From Flavobacterium sp. N502536 (GTDB taxonomy: Bacteria; Bacteroidota; Bacteroidia; Flavobacteriales; Flavobacteriaceae), in assembly GCF_025947345.1 (NCBI RefSeq), contig NZ_CP110011.1:2046001-2110000 (forward strand): a stretch of 64,000 bases of DNA. Reading direction: 5' to 3'. The notes beneath the pieces are model-generated. The model worked only from the letters and a program-made list of their open reading frames with translations. It made no database searches and was not told the DNA's origin. Below are positions 35,416 through 52,731 of this stretch, one piece after another. Both the position numbers and the translations under genes were made by a program. Numbering within the stretch: the stretch's first letter is position 1; every line of letters starts with the position of its first letter.

Positions 35416-36084
35416 ATGAATCCAAAAATACTCATCACCTCATTAGTCCTCTCCTCAATTTTTTTAACCTCCTGTAAAAAGGAATTAGAGCCTCAGGAAA
35501 ACACCCCAAATTCTGAATTGGTAAAACTGGGATTGGCAAAAGATACGACAAAAGTAAATTCAGTTGCACAGGCTCCTGCAGCTGCAGCTGCAAATCCAAA
35601 TACAGTTTTGAGTGCCAATGGCGGAATGAATCCGGCACACGGGCAACCCGGGCATCGCTGTGACATTGCGGTTGGTGCGCCATTAAATTCGGCTCCGACA
35701 CAAGGACAAACAACAACTGTACAGCCAGCACAAACGGTTCAGGTAAAACCGGGCCAACAAAATATAGTAACTACAACCACTACCACACCGGCAAAAGTGG
35801 CCAAAGGTATGAATCCGGCACACGGACAACCCGGACACCGCTGTGATATTCCGGTTGGAGCACCTTTAAACTCTCCTGCGGCTAAGCAACCGGCAGCTGC
35901 CAATACAGCTCAAAGTGGAACTACTTCGCAAACCTTTACCGTAACACCGCCTGCAACAGATAATACTGTTCCGGCTTTGTTGAGTACAGAACAAACCGCT
36001 GTGGCAGATGGAAAGAATCCGGCACACGGAAAACCGGGACACCGCTGCGATATTGCAGTAGGGGCACCGTTACCAAAATCATAA
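35416..36084 (+). CDS. Lipoprotein with three NPAHGQPGHRCDIxVGAPL motifs
   Basis: 222 residues. The signal sequence ends in the lipobox LTSC (C20), so it is lipid-anchored. Three near-identical 20-residue modules, at residues 71-90, 132-151 and 200-219, share NPAHG(Q/K)PGHRCDI(A/P)VGAPL; each has two His and one Cys in fixed order. Linkers are rich in Ala, Thr, Gln and Pro and look disordered. The H...H-R-C pattern suggests metal or haem binding, or a covalent attachment point, but this is inference. I recall the same module, often as a single copy, at the ends of other Bacteroidota proteins of unknown role. The module copies are also well conserved at DNA level. Confidence 0.82.
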   Translation: MNPKILITSLVLSSIFLTSCKKELEPQENTPNSELVKLGLAKDTTKVNSVAQAPAAAAANPNTVLSANGGMNPAHGQPGHRCDIAVGAPLNSAPTQGQTTTVQPAQTVQVKPGQQNIVTTTTTTPAKVAKGMNPAHGQPGHRCDIPVGAPLNSPAAKQPAAANTAQSGTTSQTFTVTPPATDNTVPALLSTEQTAVADGKNPAHGKPGHRCDIAVGAPLPKS

Positions 36085-37469: not shown

Positions 37470-38098
37470 GAGGGTAATTTTTAATAATTTATAGTAAATA
37501 ATCCCAGTTATGTGCTTGTTTCAAAGCTTCATTTTTGGGATTGCAAAATTACTTCTTACAATATCAAAAAGCGTTATTATTATCTTAATTAAGGTTTTTG
37601 GGTATAATTTATTTTAAATCCCATCCCGACGAATATATTTATAAAAAAAATCGAAACTATATATTTAGAGCTCCAGCGGGGCGATAAATTTATAGGAAAT
37701 TAAAAAACACACATTAACAGAACCCCATCGGGGTGACATATCGAATAGTACTAAAAATTATATGTCGCTCCGCCGGAGCTGGATTATAATAGCGCATACT
37801 AAAATTAGCTATAGATCTATCACTCCGCTGGAGTCTTAGATTAAAAAAGATTAAAAAAATTTGCTCAATCTGCGAGAAAAAAACACACACATTTCTCTCA
37901 CATAGCTATGTGTTATTTAGACAAATAAAATGCCTTTTCTGAGTCTATAAAATCTATGTTTCTATGTGTTTAAAAAATTAAAGACATAGAGAAAAAATCT
38001 GCTCAATCTGCTCAATCTGCGAGAAAAAAAGTAATCATTCTAATCTGTGAAATCTGTGGAAAAAAAAATTAACTTCGAGCAAACAAATCGCCTTACTT
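37470..38098. repeat. 629-base intergenic region rich in palindromic and CTGTGGC-type repeats
   Basis: No gene is seen. From 37660 to 37850 there are four related modules: GAGCTCCAGCGGGGCGATA, CCCCATCGGGGTGACATA, TATGTCGCTCCGCCGGAGCT (inverted) and CACTCCGCTGGAGTC. They look like REP/BIME-type elements. From about 37855 to 38080 follow direct repeats of GCTCAATCTGCGAGAAAAAAA and AATCTGTGGAAAAAAA. Confidence 0.65.
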
Positions 38099-39219: not shown

Positions 39220-39400
39220 TTTTGCGCCTAGTTTGCCATTCCAAGGAACGAGGAATCACACCCGAAACTCCGCAAAGTTTGTCCTTTCAGAAAATGAATA
39301 ATCTCATCAACATTGTCAACTGGGCGAAGCCAAACAAAAACAAAAATCGTTAATAACACATTGTCAGACTGAGCGAAGTCGAAGTCCCCGCACAAACACC
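39220..39400. repeat. Dispersed repeats (TCATTTCGA family and CTGAGCGAAGTCGAAG)
   Basis: CATTCCAAGGAACGAGGAATCACAC...AACTCCGCAAAG at about 39234-39280 is a diverged copy of the 5285 repeat. TTGTCAGACTGAGCGAAGTCGAAG lies at 39361-39384. Confidence 0.6.
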
Positions 39401-39406
39401 CTTCCC

Positions 39407-39620
39407 AAAGAAACTGAATTATGGTTAACTGATTTTTTTCAGCAATTCGATTGATCCCGAAACGATGGCAAAAACCATTCGACAGGTAAACTATGCGCTT
39501 CCTTTAAGTGTAATTTGGGAACACGAATCCTTATAATCCGAAAAAACAAACCTCCAAAATGGGTTTTACTGACTGAATCAATTAGCCGAAATTTTAAACC
39601 CTTATCTGGATGTTGAATAA
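39407..39620 (+). pseudogene. Decayed paralogue of the small conserved gene at 57162
   Basis: The translation aligns along almost its full length with the 77-residue protein at 57162: KETELWLTDFF against KETETRLMDFF, SNSIDPETMAKTIRQVNYALPLSV against NNAIDPKDMAKSIRQINHVLSLCV, and LNQLAEILNPYLDVE against LNKLAEVLDPYLDVR, ending in a matching stop. It is broken by one extra base at about 39440, a stop at 39534 (Gln position) and a TGA at 39570 in place of the conserved Trp. No start codon is visible upstream. A repeat is fused to its 5' side. The function of the family is unknown. Confidence 0.85.
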
Positions 39621-39831
39621 ACTTGAAAGAGGCTGTTCTAGATCTCAAAAAACAAAAAGAGGAAATCTATCTCATGGGAGTGAAACTTCCTATTTTTATT
39701 TTGTTTAGGAATTACTATAAAGTTTAATGGTTCATTTTAACTTTTAATTAGTGAGGTATAAAGAAAGTATTTTATTATAAATGTTCGCATTTGATTGTTT
39801 GTAAGATATTTATTTAGGTTTAAATGTATTT

Positions 39832-40671
39832 CTAGTCATATTCCTCCTGGCTTTCAAGCAACTCTTTTTCTCTTTCCATTTTAATCCGGAATTTTCTTAA
39901 ATAATTATAAGTTACTTGAAACGCAACGTCCTTGATATCTTTTAAGGGTTTTATGATATTAAAATGGTCTTTGTTTGCAATTGTATGAACATGGTCGTCA
40001 TGCTCATTAAAGCGAGCGCTATTGTTTCTAACAACCCAATCTTGCATCCCTACTACCCTAATAAAATCGATTTTATCTTCAACTCTTAAGTCGCTCCAAT
40101 CTTTATTTAAGTTTTTTATAAATGAGCTATTCTTAGAAAGTTCAAAAACTTGAATGAGTTTCGAAATAAAGAGAAACTTTAAGGGGCGGTATAGTATTAT
40201 TGAAAAGAGATTTCCTATAAATGAGCCGTGATGCGGTGTTGCATATGTGATTAGGCATTTTATTTTTCCAAGATGTTTATCTTTTTTTAATTTTTCGACT
40301 AGAAACTTTCGGGCTATAAGGCCACCCATACTGTGACAAACTATTATTATATTGTCATATTCTGAACAATTTTGAGTTATTACAGATTTTAAATGTTCAG
40401 ATAGCATAGTAATATTTTTTCCATTAAAAATATTGACCATTATCATGATTTGTGATATTATAGGGATTGAGGTATATCTTTTGTAATATTCATCGTACTC
40501 TAAGGAAAATGAATCTTTCTCATTCCAAGCTTCGTTTAGATGTGTTGCGAAATTTAACCACGTATAACAATTGCCTCCTAGTCCATGTATGAAAAGGACA
40601 GCAGTATCTGAATCTTCAGTTCCAATAAATGTAGGAAGAGGATTTTTTTTGTTCTTTAAATTTAATACCAT
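39832..40671 (-). CDS. Alpha/beta hydrolase (lipase/esterase-like), third gene of the methyltransferase island
   Basis: 279 residues. TAVLFIHGLGGNCYTW is the oxyanion-loop HG motif, VCHSMGGLIARKFL is the nucleophile elbow (Ser in CHSMGG), and ITYATPHHGSF is typical of triacylglycerol lipase-like/PGAP1-like enzymes. DHFNIIKP near the C-terminus offers the catalytic His. Hydrophobic stretches (IISQIMIMVNIF, IGNLFSIILYRPLKFLFI) may contact membranes. There is no signal peptide, so it acts inside the cell. It starts 5 bases after the ParB-like gene stops. If the locus is a defence system, this could be a membrane-lipid or small-molecule-degrading effector; that is inference. Confidence 0.8.
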   Translation of the reverse strand: MVLNLKNKKNPLPTFIGTEDSDTAVLFIHGLGGNCYTWLNFATHLNEAWNEKDSFSLEYDEYYKRYTSIPIISQIMIMVNIFNGKNITMLSEHLKSVITQNCSEYDNIIIVCHSMGGLIARKFLVEKLKKDKHLGKIKCLITYATPHHGSFIGNLFSIILYRPLKFLFISKLIQVFELSKNSSFIKNLNKDWSDLRVEDKIDFIRVVGMQDWVVRNNSARFNEHDDHVHTIANKDHFNIIKPLKDIKDVAFQVTYNYLRKFRIKMEREKELLESQEEYD

Positions 40672-40676
40672 TAAAA

Positions 40677-41933
40677 CTATATATTAATTTTGTTTTTAAT
40701 ATCTGTAAGTTTAATGTCAATATTCTCTATTGTCTTTTTTACTTCTTCCAAGGTTGTATTTTCAATTGTCTCACAATCAATTTGGCCTAGACTATTAAGA
40801 ACTCTCTTTAGAATTTTTAATGGATTGTAGGTCTCAATAATATCTTTTAAATTACCTTCATTAAAAGATAAATTGTCTAATAGTTTTTCTTCTAATTTTT
40901 CTTTCCAGTTATTGTCTAACCGTCTAATTAAGTCTTCATTACTTTTGTCTGATTCTTGCTTCTTTAATTCAGTAAAAGATTCTTCTGTATAGGTTTGCTT
41001 AATGTTTTCATGCTCGATAACAAAGTCATCCCAAATAGTTTTTTGACAAAAAAAGCTACTACTTGAGGTTGGTTTTGCTAATATTCTAGCTCTTTGAACA
41101 GGAATTCCAATTCTTATGTAATCAAAATATATGTTTTGTAGCTTTGTAACATCTTCGGGGTTGTATATCCAGTTAACAGAATTGTTTTGTTTCGTTTTAT
41201 ATGATTTTAAATATCCATTTAAATCAACAAAATGACCTTCTCGTTTTTCTAATCTTGTATATACTTCTGGAGAACCGAGGTAGATTAAATAATCTTCCAT
41301 ACGAGAAAGTATGTTTAACCATTCTACTATTCTTAATTCGGTTTCAGCCATAATATTAGCAATTTCTAAGTTGCTTAAGCCATGTTTTACAGATAGTTCT
41401 TTACATCTAATATATTTCTCAATTGGATTGTAATCAACTTTGCTATCAACTCCCATTTGGTAGCTTGTTTCTAGTAACGTTATTTCCTTTTCATTATCTG
41501 CTAATTCATCAGGAAGAACGACTGCTTTAAAAAAATCTTTACTATTATCATCATTATAAATAATATTTAAGAGCATTGCTCTCCTATTGCCATCTATAAT
41601 GACTCCATCTTTAGTGATAATTCCAATTTCTTGCTGGCCATTATCTCTTAAACTGTCTTTTGTTTTTTCATTTTTGCCAATTGCTGAATCATAAAGAAAT
41701 TGTTCAATAATTAACTTGTCTTCGGGCTTTTCAGGATTTAATAATCTATTATTAGATGACTCAAAAGATTTGGTAGAGCTTCTAATTCTTCCGTTGTAGG
41801 GATTGTATATTAGTGCATTCAATTTAATTTCTTTAACGGGCAGTTTTAAAGTGTCTCCTTTGTAATTAATTGATTTAATCTCACCTGTTGTTCTAGAAGA
41901 ATCAATTTCGGTTATTCTTTCAGCTTTAGTCAT
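40677..41933 (-). CDS. ParB/Srx-fold protein, second gene of the methyltransferase island
   Basis: 418 residues. LPVKEIKLNALIYNPYNGR opens a ParB/sulfiredoxin-like domain; GIITKDGVIIDGNRRAMLLNII carries its G-x-x-DGNRR motif. KHGLSNLEIANIMAETELRIVEWLNIL is a helix-turn-helix like that following ParB_N domains. The C-terminal third is Lys/Glu-rich and probably coiled (LRRLDNNWKEKLEEKLLDNLS, ENTTLEEVKKTIENIDIKL). It could bind DNA, hydrolyse nucleotide, or act as the nuclease of the locus; ParB-like domains occur in restriction enzymes such as DUF262 proteins. It is not a chromosome-partition gene by context. It lies 5 bases downstream of the methyltransferase gene. Confidence 0.8.
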   Translation of the reverse strand: MTKAERITEIDSSRTTGEIKSINYKGDTLKLPVKEIKLNALIYNPYNGRIRSSTKSFESSNNRLLNPEKPEDKLIIEQFLYDSAIGKNEKTKDSLRDNGQQEIGIITKDGVIIDGNRRAMLLNIIYNDDNSKDFFKAVVLPDELADNEKEITLLETSYQMGVDSKVDYNPIEKYIRCKELSVKHGLSNLEIANIMAETELRIVEWLNILSRMEDYLIYLGSPEVYTRLEKREGHFVDLNGYLKSYKTKQNNSVNWIYNPEDVTKLQNIYFDYIRIGIPVQRARILAKPTSSSSFFCQKTIWDDFVIEHENIKQTYTEESFTELKKQESDKSNEDLIRRLDNNWKEKLEEKLLDNLSFNEGNLKDIIETYNPLKILKRVLNSLGQIDCETIENTTLEEVKKTIENIDIKLTDIKNKINI

Positions 41934-41938
41934 TTGGA

Positions 41939-43645
41939 TTATAATTTATTAGCAGTTGTAGATATTTTGTTTATCGCGTATAATGCGAAAAGTTGTTTGG
42001 TTGGAACTGTTTTTTTTAGAAATACTGTGGCGTCAATTTGAATAAATTCAGGCTCATCAATTGCTATTTTTTCAATAATATTTCTTACTTCCTCAACAAG
42101 TCGAGTTGGTTCTAAAAGAATTCCACTAGACCTTTGATTTTCAAACATTACTTGAAGCTTTTTAGCATCTCCAATTTTTTCAGAGAATCCATTGTTAATT
42201 GTTTTTATAAAATTTTCTCCATCTTTAAATTTTGAAATAATAGATTCAATTTTTTTATAATAACCATCTTCAATATGTTGTATTGGAAATCCTTTTCCAG
42301 TTCCGTATTGGATAGATGTTCTCCATTTACCGTCTGTTTTGTTGTTTTTTTCAATATTGTAATTTGAAAGTGTGACAGTCAAATTTCCATCCTTAATGGG
42401 TTGCCACCTACATCTAGCATCCTTGTTTTTTATAGGAGGATTGTCAAATATCTTTTGCTTATAATTATTTAAGTTTATCACCCCCTCTAAATTTGGAATA
42501 GAATTGACGATTAATTCTTTTTTTTGTTTTATTCCTAACGAATTTAAAACGATTGCTGCAAATGCACTACTTACAGAAGCACAAACAGCATTTCCTACTA
42601 AACGCCATTTTGCGCCTTCAGAACCGATAAATTGATATGTTATAGGGAAGCCCATAATTATTGCGGCTTCTCTTACTGTGGGTAATCTATATTCTCCATC
42701 CCCCTTTCTATTTACCTCTGATTTATAAATTACGGATTCTCTTGAATTCGCTATTTTTGTAGCGGTAATTGTTCTACTTGGATTATTTTCATTTTCTGGG
42801 AATGACATTTTTCCCATGAAAGGATGGTTAGTTTTCCAATGTCTTGAAAATCTCCATTCTGATTCATAAACACCAGTGTCATAAAAATGATCTGTTATTT
42901 TGTTTTGTTCAATTTCAATAGGATAAAGAATATCGTTAATTAATTTATTGCTCTTTTTTTCAAATGGAGAAGGGAAATTTTTCTTGATTAAGCCTATTGA
43001 TTTATAAAGGGGTAAGTTAAGTTCTGTGTCCTTTTTTTGATGTGTTGGTGTAGGGACAATTAATTTTTTCTTTTTTATAATTTCACCAGAAATAAGCCTT
43101 TTTCTTGATTGGATTGAGCCATAGTCTGCTGAATTTATAATAGTTGTATTGTCGTATAAGTCTATAGCGGTATTTAAAGGGCCAATTCTATGTTTTTTTG
43201 CCCAATCTTCAAGACCTAAATCTTTAAACGTATAAGATGTTTGTAGGTATCTTTTTGAGTTTACAACATTTTCCATAAACCAAGCTTTCAAAATAGAATT
43301 TGGTTTATGCTTTTTTACTGCAACAATTCTTAAAAATGTTTCGGTCAATGAAACCCCAAGTGACTTGTCAGCATTTCCTGATTTATTTGAACTTGAGAAA
43401 CTTACACAAGGAGGACTTCCAATGATAACATCTGTGTCAGGAACAGCTTCAATTTCTTCAATTGAATTTTTAAAATCTAGTATATTTTTAACTTCACAAT
43501 TTAAATTAAAATTATGATTATAGGTGTCGATTGCTGGTTTCCAGTGGTCATAACCATGCTTGATGTCAAACCCTTTTTGTCTGAAACCTTCAGAAAATCC
43601 TCCCGCGCCACAGAAAAAATCGACAACGGTTAATTTATTCTCCAT
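41939..43645 (-). CDS. DNA (cytosine-5) methyltransferase with long C-terminal extension
   Basis: 568 residues, long for this family. The m5C motifs appear in order: I VVDFFCGAGGFSEGF, IV GSPPCVSFSS (catalytic Cys), VI FMENVVN, VIII IQSRKRLI, IX-region RLPTVREAAIIMGFP and X VGNAVCASVSSAFAAI. All key residues are kept, so it should be active. Residues about 370-568 form an extension I do not recognise. It is the first gene of a three-gene minus-strand operon. Its ATG overlaps the end of a truncated XRE-type reading frame (ATGGAGAATAA), as in controller-methyltransferase pairs of restriction systems. Base composition is visibly more A+T-rich than the flanking housekeeping genes, suggesting acquisition. 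Confidence 0.93.
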   Translation of the reverse strand: MENKLTVVDFFCGAGGFSEGFRQKGFDIKHGYDHWKPAIDTYNHNFNLNCEVKNILDFKNSIEEIEAVPDTDVIIGSPPCVSFSSSNKSGNADKSLGVSLTETFLRIVAVKKHKPNSILKAWFMENVVNSKRYLQTSYTFKDLGLEDWAKKHRIGPLNTAIDLYDNTTIINSADYGSIQSRKRLISGEIIKKKKLIVPTPTHQKKDTELNLPLYKSIGLIKKNFPSPFEKKSNKLINDILYPIEIEQNKITDHFYDTGVYESEWRFSRHWKTNHPFMGKMSFPENENNPSRTITATKIANSRESVIYKSEVNRKGDGEYRLPTVREAAIIMGFPITYQFIGSEGAKWRLVGNAVCASVSSAFAAIVLNSLGIKQKKELIVNSIPNLEGVINLNNYKQKIFDNPPIKNKDARCRWQPIKDGNLTVTLSNYNIEKNNKTDGKWRTSIQYGTGKGFPIQHIEDGYYKKIESIISKFKDGENFIKTINNGFSEKIGDAKKLQVMFENQRSSGILLEPTRLVEEVRNIIEKIAIDEPEFIQIDATVFLKKTVPTKQLFALYAINKISTTANKL

Positions 43646-43718
43646 AATTAAATAATTCTTGAATGTTTACTTCGAGTGCTTTTGCAAGTTTCCAATGATT
43701 AGCATTAAAGATTTCTCT
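43635..43718 (-). pseudogene. C-terminal remnant of an XRE-type (controller-like) regulator
   Basis: The frame REIFNANHWKLAKALEVNIQELFNYGE then stop is open on the minus strand and looks like the last helices of a Cro/C1-type HTH protein (WKLAKALEV-x-I-x-ELF is the usual tail). A TAA precedes it, there is no start codon, and the distance to the predicted promoter leaves no room for an HTH, so the N-terminal part is lost. Its stop codon overlaps the methyltransferase start by 11 bases, the layout expected for translational coupling. Recognition rests on a short stretch. Confidence 0.5.
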
Positions 43719-43770
43719 TTATTTTAAATAACATTCGCCGCATTTGTAATATTAATAAAAATTTTCTTTC

Positions 43771-43792
43771 AAATTTACATCGTGTACAATTT
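43771..43792. promoter_or_regulatory. Imperfect palindrome in the methyltransferase leader
   Basis: AAATTTACA-TCG-TGTACAATTT is an inverted repeat with one bulged base. It lies just downstream of the -7 box TATATTTG on the minus strand (43797-43804), a fitting place for an XRE-type controller operator. Confidence 0.4.
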
Positions 43793-43796
43793 ATAA

Positions 43797-43804
43797 CAAA
43801 TATA
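43797..43804 (-). promoter_or_regulatory. -7 box TATATTTG of the methyltransferase operon
   Basis: The minus-strand match to TAnnTTTG lies about 150 bases before the methyltransferase ATG. No -33 TTG at good spacing. Confidence 0.45.
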
Positions 43805-43930
43805 GCTTATTAACTAATTAAATTTTATGGAAAACAATAATATATTAAAAAATTCTATTGGCAAGTGTATTAATAAATAAAAAGTTATAATAGCGTATTT
43901 ATACGTGTTTTTAGGATGCGATGAAAAAAA

Positions 43931-50738: not shown

Positions 50739-50812
50739 GGTTTGGTAGTTCAGTTGGTTAGAATACATGCCTGTCACGCATGGGGTCGCGGGTTCGAGTC
50801 CCGTCCAGACCG
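50739..50812 (+). tRNA. tRNA-Asp (GUC), copy 1
   Basis: 74 bases. The acceptor stem GGTTTGG pairs with CCAGACC; the D-arm contains AGTTGGTTAGA; the anticodon stem-loop TGCCT-GTC-ACGCA gives GUC; the T-arm is CGGGTTCGAGTCCCG. The CCA end is not encoded. A second, identical copy lies 578 bases downstream. Confidence 0.95.
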
Positions 50813-50822
50813 CAATATTGGG

Positions 50823-50852
50823 AAAAGCCTTTCTTAACGGAAAGGCTTTTTT
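50823..50852 (+). terminator. Terminator of tRNA-Asp copy 1
   Basis: Arms AAAAGCCTTTC and GGAAAGGCTTTT around TTAAC. Confidence 0.88.
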
Positions 50853-50989
50853 GCCCAAATACGGTATCTAAGATTAGTTGTGTTGTTTTGCTACGACTTT
50901 GTAACTCGTAGCTGGTTTAGTAGTTAGACCAATGAAAAGCTTTCCACTTTTGTGGATGGCTTTTTTGATTTAGGACACTTTTGGTTTTT

Positions 50990-51215
50990 GTTTTTAAATG
51001 CAAAGAGCGCTAAGATTTAAGTAAAGTCCGCAAAGTTTTTTATAAGCTTTGCGGATTTTTTGGTTTTTGGTTTAGCCGCAAGGGGTGCTAAGGTTTGCGC
51101 GAAGTTCGCAAGGTTTTTTATGGGCTTTGCGGATTTTTTGGTTTTGCTTGTTTGGTTTAGCCGTAAAGTGCGCTAAGGTTTACGCGAAGTTTTTTAAGTT
51201 TTGCGGAGTTGGCGC
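50990..51215. repeat. Tandem degenerate repeat, about 80-85 bases, three units
   Basis: Each unit reads roughly GCAAAG-GCGCTAAG-TTT-CG-AAGT-CGCAAAG-TTTTTTAT, then GCTTTGCGGATTTTTTGG, then TTTGGTTTAGCC. Units begin near 50998, 51078 and 51162; the third is shortened. Inside each, CCGCAAAG and CTTTGCGG form a hairpin. No gene is supported. Confidence 0.7.
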
Positions 51216-51341
51216 TTTCCGTTTTGGGTTCTTTGAAGTCAAAAAGAAAGAAAGTTCTTCTTTTTTGATTTGACAGGCGAATTTTAAAATATTGGAATCT
51301 AATCAATTAAAAATTTCTTAAAATTTATTCGCAAAAAAAGC

Positions 51342-51371
51342 TTGTAGAATCAAAGATCTGTTGTATTTTTG
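51342..51371 (+). promoter_or_regulatory. Promoter TTG-N19-TATTTTTG of tRNA-Asp (copy 2)
   Basis: TTG at 51342-51344 and TATTTTTG at 51364-51371, the same spacing as copy 1. Confidence 0.8.
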
Positions 51372-51390
51372 CACTCGCAATAACGCAGTT

Positions 51391-51464
51391 GGTTTGGTAG
51401 TTCAGTTGGTTAGAATACATGCCTGTCACGCATGGGGTCGCGGGTTCGAGTCCCGTCCAGACCG
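51391..51464 (+). tRNA. tRNA-Asp (GUC), copy 2
   Basis: Identical 74-base gene to the copy at 50739. The similarity extends into the 5' flank (CGCAATAACGCAG) and the 3' terminator, which marks a recent tandem duplication. Confidence 0.95.
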
Positions 51465-51475
51465 CAATATTGGGA

Positions 51476-52480: not shown

Positions 52481-52731
52481 ATTATTTTTCTCTTGTAGAT
52501 TAAGTATATAGGGGAATAAATCTGCTTAATCTGCTTAATCTGCGGGAGTTTTTTTTAAATAACTAAAAAGTAAATCTTATTCGTAACGGTTTGTTTGTCA
52601 TTGTTTTAGTGTGGAGTTGTTGAAAAATAATATTTTAACATTTGTCTGAAATGAATATGTTATTGACTTTTTAGAATTATCAGTCACCAAAAAAATGCAG
52701 GAACTTTGCATCATAAATTATTTATGTATTC
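52481..52731. other. Intergenic region with a CTGCTTAATCTGC direct repeat
   Basis: TCTGCTTAATCTGCTTAATC near 52526 is part of the dispersed CTGTGGC/CTGCGAG group. No gene or clear TAnnTTTG box for the downstream efflux operon is seen; GGAACTTTG at about 52701 is a one-base miss. Confidence 0.45.

What the first reader, a model, noticed from the sequence alone, without database searches (positions are those of the whole stretch)
39832..43645. Candidate undescribed defence or modification island: m5C methyltransferase + ParB-fold protein + alpha/beta hydrolase
Seen: three minus-strand genes with 5-bp gaps, more A+T-rich than their surroundings, between a decayed pseudogene plus repeats and the asmA-like gene. 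The methyltransferase keeps all m5C motifs and has a roughly 200-residue C-terminal extension. The second gene has a ParB/Srx domain (DGNRR) and HTH. The third has a CHSMGG nucleophile elbow. No known restriction endonuclease motif is visible. Known: ParB-like domains occur in modification-dependent restriction enzymes; lipases and esterases occur as effectors in abortive systems. Inference: the ParB-like protein may sense or cut unmodified DNA and the hydrolase may be the effector. I cannot match the trio to a named system.
Basis: partly seen in the sequence, partly recalled or inferred. Interest (0 to 1): 0.78.

Follow-up and report, generated by a model that had tools for sequence, protein, structure and literature searches.

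The report
DNA-marking defence set with lipase-like effector
Three neighbouring genes in a Flavobacterium-like bacterium look like a variant of a widespread DNA-protection gene set, for which I found no name, with its usual DNA-attacking arm replaced by a lipase-like enzyme related to a known phage-defence effector; this is predicted from comparison only and is untested.

Summary
The trio is real: m5C methyltransferase, ParB-fold protein and alpha/beta hydrolase, intact, 5-bp gaps, low GC. Of 81 relatives of the ParB-like gene in 79 genome loci, 74 are followed within two genes by an SNF2 helicase (68 also by NOV_C, a predicted nuclease), 6 directly by this hydrolase, 1 ends at a contig edge; an m5C methyltransferase lies within six genes in 77 of 79. 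So the window holds a variant of a methyltransferase-ParB-SNF2-NOV_C set with the helicase-nuclease arm replaced. The hydrolase specifically resembles LmuA of Lamassu. Hydrolase-linked ParBs form one clade, but the methyltransferases of hydrolase-only loci are polyphyletic (AU p = 2e-43); the window's is nearest to a helicase-type set's. Two loci carry both arms. The trio sits between hpf and asmA, where 11 of 12 same-genus relatives hold restriction/defence-type domains. Most likely the methyltransferase marks self, the ParB-like protein reads unmarked DNA, and the hydrolase is an abortive effector. Context and exchange are well supported; mechanism is inferred. Three ParBs tested match no PADLOC 2023 model, and nine literature searches showed no description. 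New variant of a known kind.

The parts
41939..43645 (-). m5C DNA methyltransferase, 568 aa, predicted self-marking component; only PF00145 match in the genome
   Evidence: PF00145 2.4e-37; PDB matches 3g7u, M.HaeIII, DNMT1, M.HhaI; only PF00145 hit in G000; nearest relative among the fetched loci L056, 82% identity
41942..42532 (-). C-terminal extension of the methyltransferase (about residues 372-568), present at 188-214 residues in all 45 family methyltransferases compared (members of 500-700 aa)
40677..41933 (-). ParB-fold protein, 418 aa, predicted DNA reader: N-domain about residues 28-165, HTH about 166-245, helical C-terminal part about 301-418
41580..41594 (-). DGNRR motif (residues 114-118), aligned with GERR of canonical ParB
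   Evidence: 15 of 15 hydrolase-type rows; of 73 helicase-type rows, 73 at D114-R117 and 72 (one X) at R118; alignment to canonical ParB
39832..40671 (-). alpha/beta hydrolase, 279 aa, LmuA-like, predicted effector
   Evidence: PADLOC LmuA 2.8e-13; only match of that model in G000 and none in 14 control genomes; PGAP1 2.8e-13
40330..40332 (-). codon of nucleophile Ser114 (CHSMGG elbow)
   Evidence: 40 of 40 rows
40039..40041 (-). codon of Asp211, predicted triad acid
   Evidence: 40 of 40 rows
39964..39966 (-). codon of His236, predicted triad base
   Evidence: 40 of 40 rows
43634..43691 (-). 3' end of an XRE-type regulator gene (remnant), overlapping the methyltransferase start
   Evidence: 56 of 58 nt identical to the 3' end of an HTH_3 gene and the start of a different methyltransferase at the same site of relative G482 (L110)
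39632..43930 (.). extent of the island, between the conserved segment ending at 39631 and the asmA stop
   Evidence: no BLASTN match of 50 bp or more here in the 14 fetched relatives except 43598-43719 (L110) and 43794-43930 (L111) and a few bases at the asmA edge

Best explanation
A restriction-modification-like anti-phage island with an exchanged effector. The methyltransferase marks a target sequence on host DNA. The ParB-fold protein surveys DNA, probably as a nucleotide-regulated dimer or clamp, and is licensed by unmarked target sites on incoming DNA. Instead of handing that DNA to the SNF2-helicase/NOV_C arm used by most of its relatives, it activates the LmuA-like alpha/beta hydrolase, which attacks membrane lipid or another acyl-ester substrate and stops the infected cell. 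Shown by comparison: the gene set, its conserved synteny, the one-clade ParB-hydrolase pairing, the methyltransferase exchange, the LmuA kinship, the hotspot. Inferred: defence function, discrimination by methylation, ParB-hydrolase contact, the substrate and the abortive outcome.
For: Synteny: of 81 ParB-family genes in 79 loci, 74 are followed within two genes by SNF2 (68 also by NOV_C within three), 6 directly by the hydrolase, 1 truncated; methyltransferase within six genes in 77 of 79. Nine more, non-duplicate loci (L190-L194, L197, L199-L201) are all helicase-type. L006 and L007 carry a helicase-type set and an extra ParB-hydrolase pair (L007's NOV_C is cut by the end of the stretch). 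Hydrolase-linked ParBs are one clade, SH-aLRT 98, 15 rows (7 seen directly, 8 of the 29 contig-length links). Methyltransferases of the four hydrolase-only loci with a family methyltransferase are not one clade, AU p 2.4e-43. The LmuA model rings only at this gene in G000 and in 0 of 14 controls; a same-genus Lamassu LmuA aligns at 26% over 238 residues; alpha/beta hydrolase is listed among LmuA effector domains (passages of PMC10586767). ParB core positions are invariant in both types; the C-terminal part is least alike between types (0.198 against 0.358 and 0.31 within). Hotspot: 11 of 12 intervals hold restriction/defence-type Pfam domains. No NOV_C match in G000 and only weak partial SNF2 matches.
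Against: No experiment. The same ParB-hydrolase clade pairs with methyltransferases as distant as L004's, which is hard to square with one shared target; TRD conservation did not differ clearly from a small control. L002 has no family methyltransferase beside it, only an m5C methyltransferase of another group on the opposite strand. The ParB-like protein fails the Pfam cut-off, has no significant PDB sequence match, and nucleotide binding is unproven. The set is rare: ParB family in 8 of 398 genus genomes, hydrolase in 3 of 395 order genomes, one of them in a Lamassu, G000 counted in both. The 79 loci are the best 79 by match to the window-type ParB, so 6 of 81 is not a prevalence.
Confidence: 0.55

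Rival explanations
1. Guard of the methyltransferase rather than detector of foreign DNA: the ParB-like protein sits on methylated host sites and holds the hydrolase inactive; when a phage destroys host DNA, depletes SAM or blocks the methyltransferase, the hydrolase is released and the cell dies.
For: Same parts. In L006 and L007 the ParB-hydrolase pair stands beside a helicase-type set with one methyltransferase, as expected of a second-line guard.
Against: Does not explain why the same ParB family elsewhere goes with helicase-nuclease arms, which would act on foreign DNA. No data on toxicity.
Confidence: 0.2
2. The ParB-like protein is itself the restriction nuclease (ParB/Srx nuclease fold) that cuts unmethylated DNA; the hydrolase is a minor accessory.
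For: ParB-fold proteins with nuclease activity are mentioned in passages of PMC12839542 and PMC3710099. The island holds no other candidate nuclease among its three ORFs of 80 aa or more.
Against: In 74 of 81 cases a helicase follows, in 68 also NOV_C, and in 23 of those 74 a weakly BanI/DpnII-like protein (below Pfam cut-off in the one member tested) stands directly upstream, so ParB is rarely the only candidate nuclease. The hydrolase triad is invariant.
Confidence: 0.12
3. Not defence: an epigenetic or partition-type regulator pair carried by a mobile element.
For: ParB fold and HTH; family members in 13 IMG/VR loci, and weaker matches in 68 plasmid records, all under 60% identity and only 1 covering 80% of the query, and 5 phage records.
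Against: Only these three ORFs of 80 aa or more lie in the island; the site is shared with restriction systems; the hydrolase is LmuA-specific.
Confidence: 0.08

Closest known systems
Methyltransferase-ParB-SNF2-NOV_C sets (the helicase-type relatives found here; I found no published name)
   Same: Same methyltransferase family with the same C-terminal extension (45 loci with the family methyltransferase directly upstream), same ParB family, same gene order
   Different: Window has the hydrolase in place of SNF2 and NOV_C; no NOV_C match in G000
Lamassu with hydrolase LmuA (LmuABC)
   Same: Hydrolase domain of the LmuA model PDLC03851; same-genus example L188
   Different: ParB and a methyltransferase instead of LmuC and LmuB; the match covers model positions 9-196 of 343 only, and the CTD8 domain of the L188 LmuA has no match in the window protein
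ABC-3C hydrolase effectors with CTD8 (PF20284)
   Same: Distant homologues of the hydrolase: P0166 and the L188 LmuA carry CTD8
   Different: No CTD8 match in the window protein
Type II R-M with m5C methyltransferase
   Same: Candidate cognate m5C methyltransferase; XRE-gene remnant upstream; Vsr profile near in 23 of 79 loci
   Different: No restriction-endonuclease family match in the trio
ParB/KorB/Noc DNA-binding CTPases
   Same: N-domain and HTH fold, colinear motifs DGNRR/GERR and YNPIEKY/DPIE
   Different: Fails Pfam cut-off; by eye an insert after the first motif; different C-terminal part; CTP use unknown
DndB / SspE / DpdB ParB-superfamily defence proteins (recalled; DndB also in passages)
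   Same: ParB-superfamily protein in a DNA-modification defence locus
   Different: Other modification chemistry and partners; not compared by sequence here

Membership tests
C-5 cytosine DNA methyltransferase | PF00145 over cut-off and conserved catalytic motifs | tested here: met
   129.5 bits against 22; motif columns
Methyltransferase-ParB family set | family methyltransferase directly upstream of family ParB | tested here: met
Helicase-type subset | SNF2 and NOV_C downstream | tested here: not met
   hydrolase follows instead; no NOV_C match in G000; only weak partial SNF2 matches
Lamassu | LmuA-type effector domain | tested here: met
   hydrolase part of the LmuA model, 2.8e-13; no other match in G000 and none in 14 controls
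Lamassu | SMC-like LmuB beside the effector | tested here: not met
   neighbours are ParB and methyltransferase; in G000 only weak partial LmuB-model matches far away (22.1 and 20.2 bits), in a search that also rings in 9 of 14 controls
ParB (Pfam) | sequence match over curated cut-off | tested here: not met
ParB fold | ParB N-domain plus HTH fold | tested here: met
   [not shown]
ParB CTPase clamp | CTP binding, clamp closure on DNA | not testable with these tools
   core positions conserved, activity unknown
Type II restriction-modification | endonuclease cutting unmethylated target | not testable with these tools
   no endonuclease family match in the trio, but activity cannot be excluded by sequence
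ABC-3C | CTD domain on the effector and ABC ATPase partner | tested here: not met
   no CTD match; neighbours are ParB and methyltransferase

The most novel reading that the evidence does not exclude
A ParB-type nucleotide-gated DNA clamp acts as a general reader of missing DNA methylation and is a plug-in hub: the same reader family can be wired to a helicase-nuclease arm that destroys the DNA or to a Lamassu-type lipase that kills the cell, so one R-M lineage switches between restriction and abortive infection by exchanging the ParB-effector pair while keeping methyltransferases of the local lineage.
Probability: 0.35. Interest if true: 0.8.

Novelty: new variant of a known kind. Interest (0 to 1): 0.62.

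Why it matters
It would link three areas that are usually treated apart: methylation-based self/non-self discrimination, ParB-type DNA clamps and abortive lipase effectors. It also gives a natural experiment in effector exchange: one reader family, two kinds of effector, sometimes in one locus (L006, L007). The parent methyltransferase-ParB-SNF2-NOV_C set occurs in Bacteroidota, Bacillota, Chloroflexota, Pseudomonadota and candidate phyla (rows), and I found no name for it, so an assay of either form would help to annotate many genomes.

Tried and rejected
Sequence search of the PDB with the ParB-like family profile: 3 matches at E<=1, none ParB, none significant. A first profile-profile comparison with canonical ParB failed; a larger family alignment in local mode gave a modest match. 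Both are told.

TRD test: I expected the target-recognition region of the methyltransferase to be unusually conserved, which would suggest one shared target. Family pairs at 35-45% catalytic identity have TRD identity 0.318 (29 pairs), controls 0.279 (34 pairs); only 32 family and 10 of 38 control sequences were usable. Not distinguishing; claim dropped. An earlier script stopped with an error after printing family values, and another found only 12 candidate control frames.

29 of the 40 closest hydrolase homologues match, 0 of the 20 others. The ParB list itself is the best 120 of 1196.

Limits of the locus set: the genome scan used two peptide patterns, 86 relatives were confirmed, the best 80 kept, 79 distinct. 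Family labels come from profiles built from single seeds whose Pfam identity was checked; not every member was run through Pfam, and the XRE and HNH profiles found few members.

Rows dropped: the ParB tree used 80 of 82 non-window family hits (two pieces of the split L079 gene left out) and 8 of the 29 contig-length-linked proteins. The methyltransferase tree used family members of 500-700 aa without L037. The hydrolase alignment left out P0160, 180 aa. Of 14 hotspot regions fetched, L104 and L108 do not span the interval and were not counted. BLASTN rows under 50 bp were not printed.

Literature: nine searches answered; no description of the set seen in the listings. Passages only were seen of PMC12839542, PMC10853773, PMC12799240, PMC10586767, PMC3710099 and PMC13190303; no paper was read whole. 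Subscription papers are mostly outside the library, so a name may exist. PADLOC is version 2.0.0 of 2023: ParBs of the window, L056 and L026 match no model; SNF2 and NOV_C representatives match parts of models of other systems such as ZorD, DrmD, DpdE, TmtA, PDC-S36 and PD-T4-1.
Full report
WHAT IS THERE. The three ORFs are as described, on the minus strand at 41939-43645, 40677-41933 and 39832-40671 with 5-bp gaps, at GC 0.280-0.320; 20 of 23 flanking windows have 0.348-0.494. The window lies in a single-contig 5.05-Mb genome, 99.69% complete. Its genus is probably Flavobacterium: a same-genus genome (G618) has a contig of the same length as that of Flavobacterium sp. 9AF (L056). The methyltransferase is the only PF00145 match in the genome.

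THE FAMILY SET. A profile of the ParB-like family found 86 relatives in the genome collection (one genome for each of 84,980 species) by two peptide patterns; the best 80, 79 distinct loci, were kept. They were chosen by ParB sequence alone, so the neighbours are independent evidence, but the sample is not a prevalence. Of 81 ParB genes, 74 are followed within two genes by an SNF2 helicase, 68 of them by a NOV_C protein within three; directly upstream of these 74 stand the family methyltransferase in 45, a weakly BanI/DpnII-like protein in 23, and neither in 6. Six ParB genes are followed directly by the hydrolase (L002-L007), and one is cut by the contig end. An m5C methyltransferase lies within six genes in 77 of 79 loci (the other two, L035 and L041, are contigs of 5.2 and 5.6 kb) and a Vsr-type gene in 23 (domain identities of seed proteins). 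Nine further non-duplicate loci from genus and family genomes are helicase-type, and so are the 11 of 13 IMG/VR loci whose downstream gene could be read. Passages of PMC3710099 call DUF3883 a novel REase domain, found fused to an SNF2 helicase in an R-M operon, and mention a HEPN gene in operon with ParB nuclease and DNA methylase genes; that DUF3883 is the NOV_C domain is my recollection.

THE EXCHANGE. Hydrolase-linked ParBs form one clade (SH-aLRT 98; 15 rows against 73 helicase-linked rows). Of the 40 closest hydrolase homologues, 29 come from contigs with the same length as a listed ParB-bearing contig, none of the other 20 (indirect). In contrast the methyltransferases of the four hydrolase-only loci with a family methyltransferase (window, L003, L004, L005) fall in four places and reject one clade (AU p 2.4e-43); the window enzyme is sister to that of L056, 82% identical, whose set is helicase-type. 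So the ParB-hydrolase pair has been combined with several methyltransferase lineages, or the methyltransferases have been exchanged under it. Both ParB types keep N44, N47, R49, Q100, D114-R117, E155, Q159, K165, Y168 and Y174 in 15 of 15 and 73 of 73 rows. Identity between types falls along the protein: 0.49 in the N-domain (0.62 and 0.58 within types), 0.42 in the HTH region (0.63, 0.50), 0.32 at 246-300 (0.52, 0.44) and 0.198 at 301-418 (0.358, 0.31), as expected if the C-terminal part faces the effector. L006 and L007 hold a helicase-type set plus an extra ParB-hydrolase pair.

THE EFFECTOR. PADLOC's LmuA model PDLC03851 matches the hydrolase at 2.8e-13; in the whole genome it rings only there, and in 0 of 14 control genomes, so this is not a generic alpha/beta-hydrolase signal. 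A same-genus genome has a full Lamassu (LmuA 4.4e-81, LmuC 9.7e-34, LmuB 9e-195) near a type I restriction HsdR-type gene; its LmuA, which carries CTD8, aligns with the window protein at 26% over 238 residues. Another distant relative, P0166, also carries CTD8. Passages of PMC10586767 list alpha/beta hydrolase among LmuA N-terminal effector domains and describe the C-terminal part as a possible docking station. The window protein matches only model positions 9-196 of 343. The solved relatives found by profile are lipases, BlEst2 and PlaB phospholipase, hence a lipid or acyl-ester substrate is my guess.

HOW IT MOST LIKELY WORKS. Self-marking by the methyltransferase, reading by the ParB-like protein, killing or arrest by the hydrolase. 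The first step follows from the enzyme family; the second from fold and conserved pairing; the third from LmuA kinship. Whether ParB detects unmarked foreign DNA or guards the host mark cannot be told from sequence. The genome has no NOV_C match and only weak partial SNF2 matches, 28% identity to part of a 968-residue frame, so I see no helicase arm of this family to share.

LIMITS. The set is rare: family ParB in 8 of 398 genus genomes and 8 of 299 family genomes (both count G000), hydrolase in 3 of 395 order genomes, one of which is the Lamassu. Eight of the 15 hydrolase-type rows in the ParB tree rest on contig length. L002 has only an m5C methyltransferase of another group on the opposite strand. 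The TRD comparison did not support a shared target. No activity was tested. The trees used the quick mode.

VERDICT. Observation confirmed, interpretation partly supported, novelty: new variant of a known kind, interest 0.62.

Noticed in passing
39392-39631: Segment conserved at 70-89% in 6 of 12 genus relatives between hpf and the variable part; in L114 it overlaps a short ORF of 111 aa whose peptide resembles one in L107. Probably an old gene remnant of the interval.
   Followed up: partly
[not shown]
   Followed up: partly
50739-51465: Two tRNA-Asp(gtc) genes flank a 78-bp tandem repeat (2.6 copies, 50979-51191).
   Followed up: no
37996-38020 and 52519-52543: Nearly the same 9-bp unit (AATCTGCTC / AATCTGCTT) repeated 2.8 times at two places 14.5 kb apart.
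   Followed up: no
35416-36084: Protein with three copies of a NPAHG.PGHRCDI motif and a lipoprotein-like start, by eye; parts of it also match several places of the same gene region in relatives.
   Followed up: no
[not shown]
   Followed up: partly
L188:1593-11844: Complete hydrolase-type Lamassu in a same-genus genome (PADLOC), near a type I restriction HsdR-type gene.
   Followed up: partly
L163-L175: Family ParB in 13 IMG/VR loci: 11 followed by SNF2, 2 cut by the stretch end, none by the hydrolase; 11 of 13 with the BanI/DpnII-like protein upstream; may be prophage or host sequence.
   Followed up: partly
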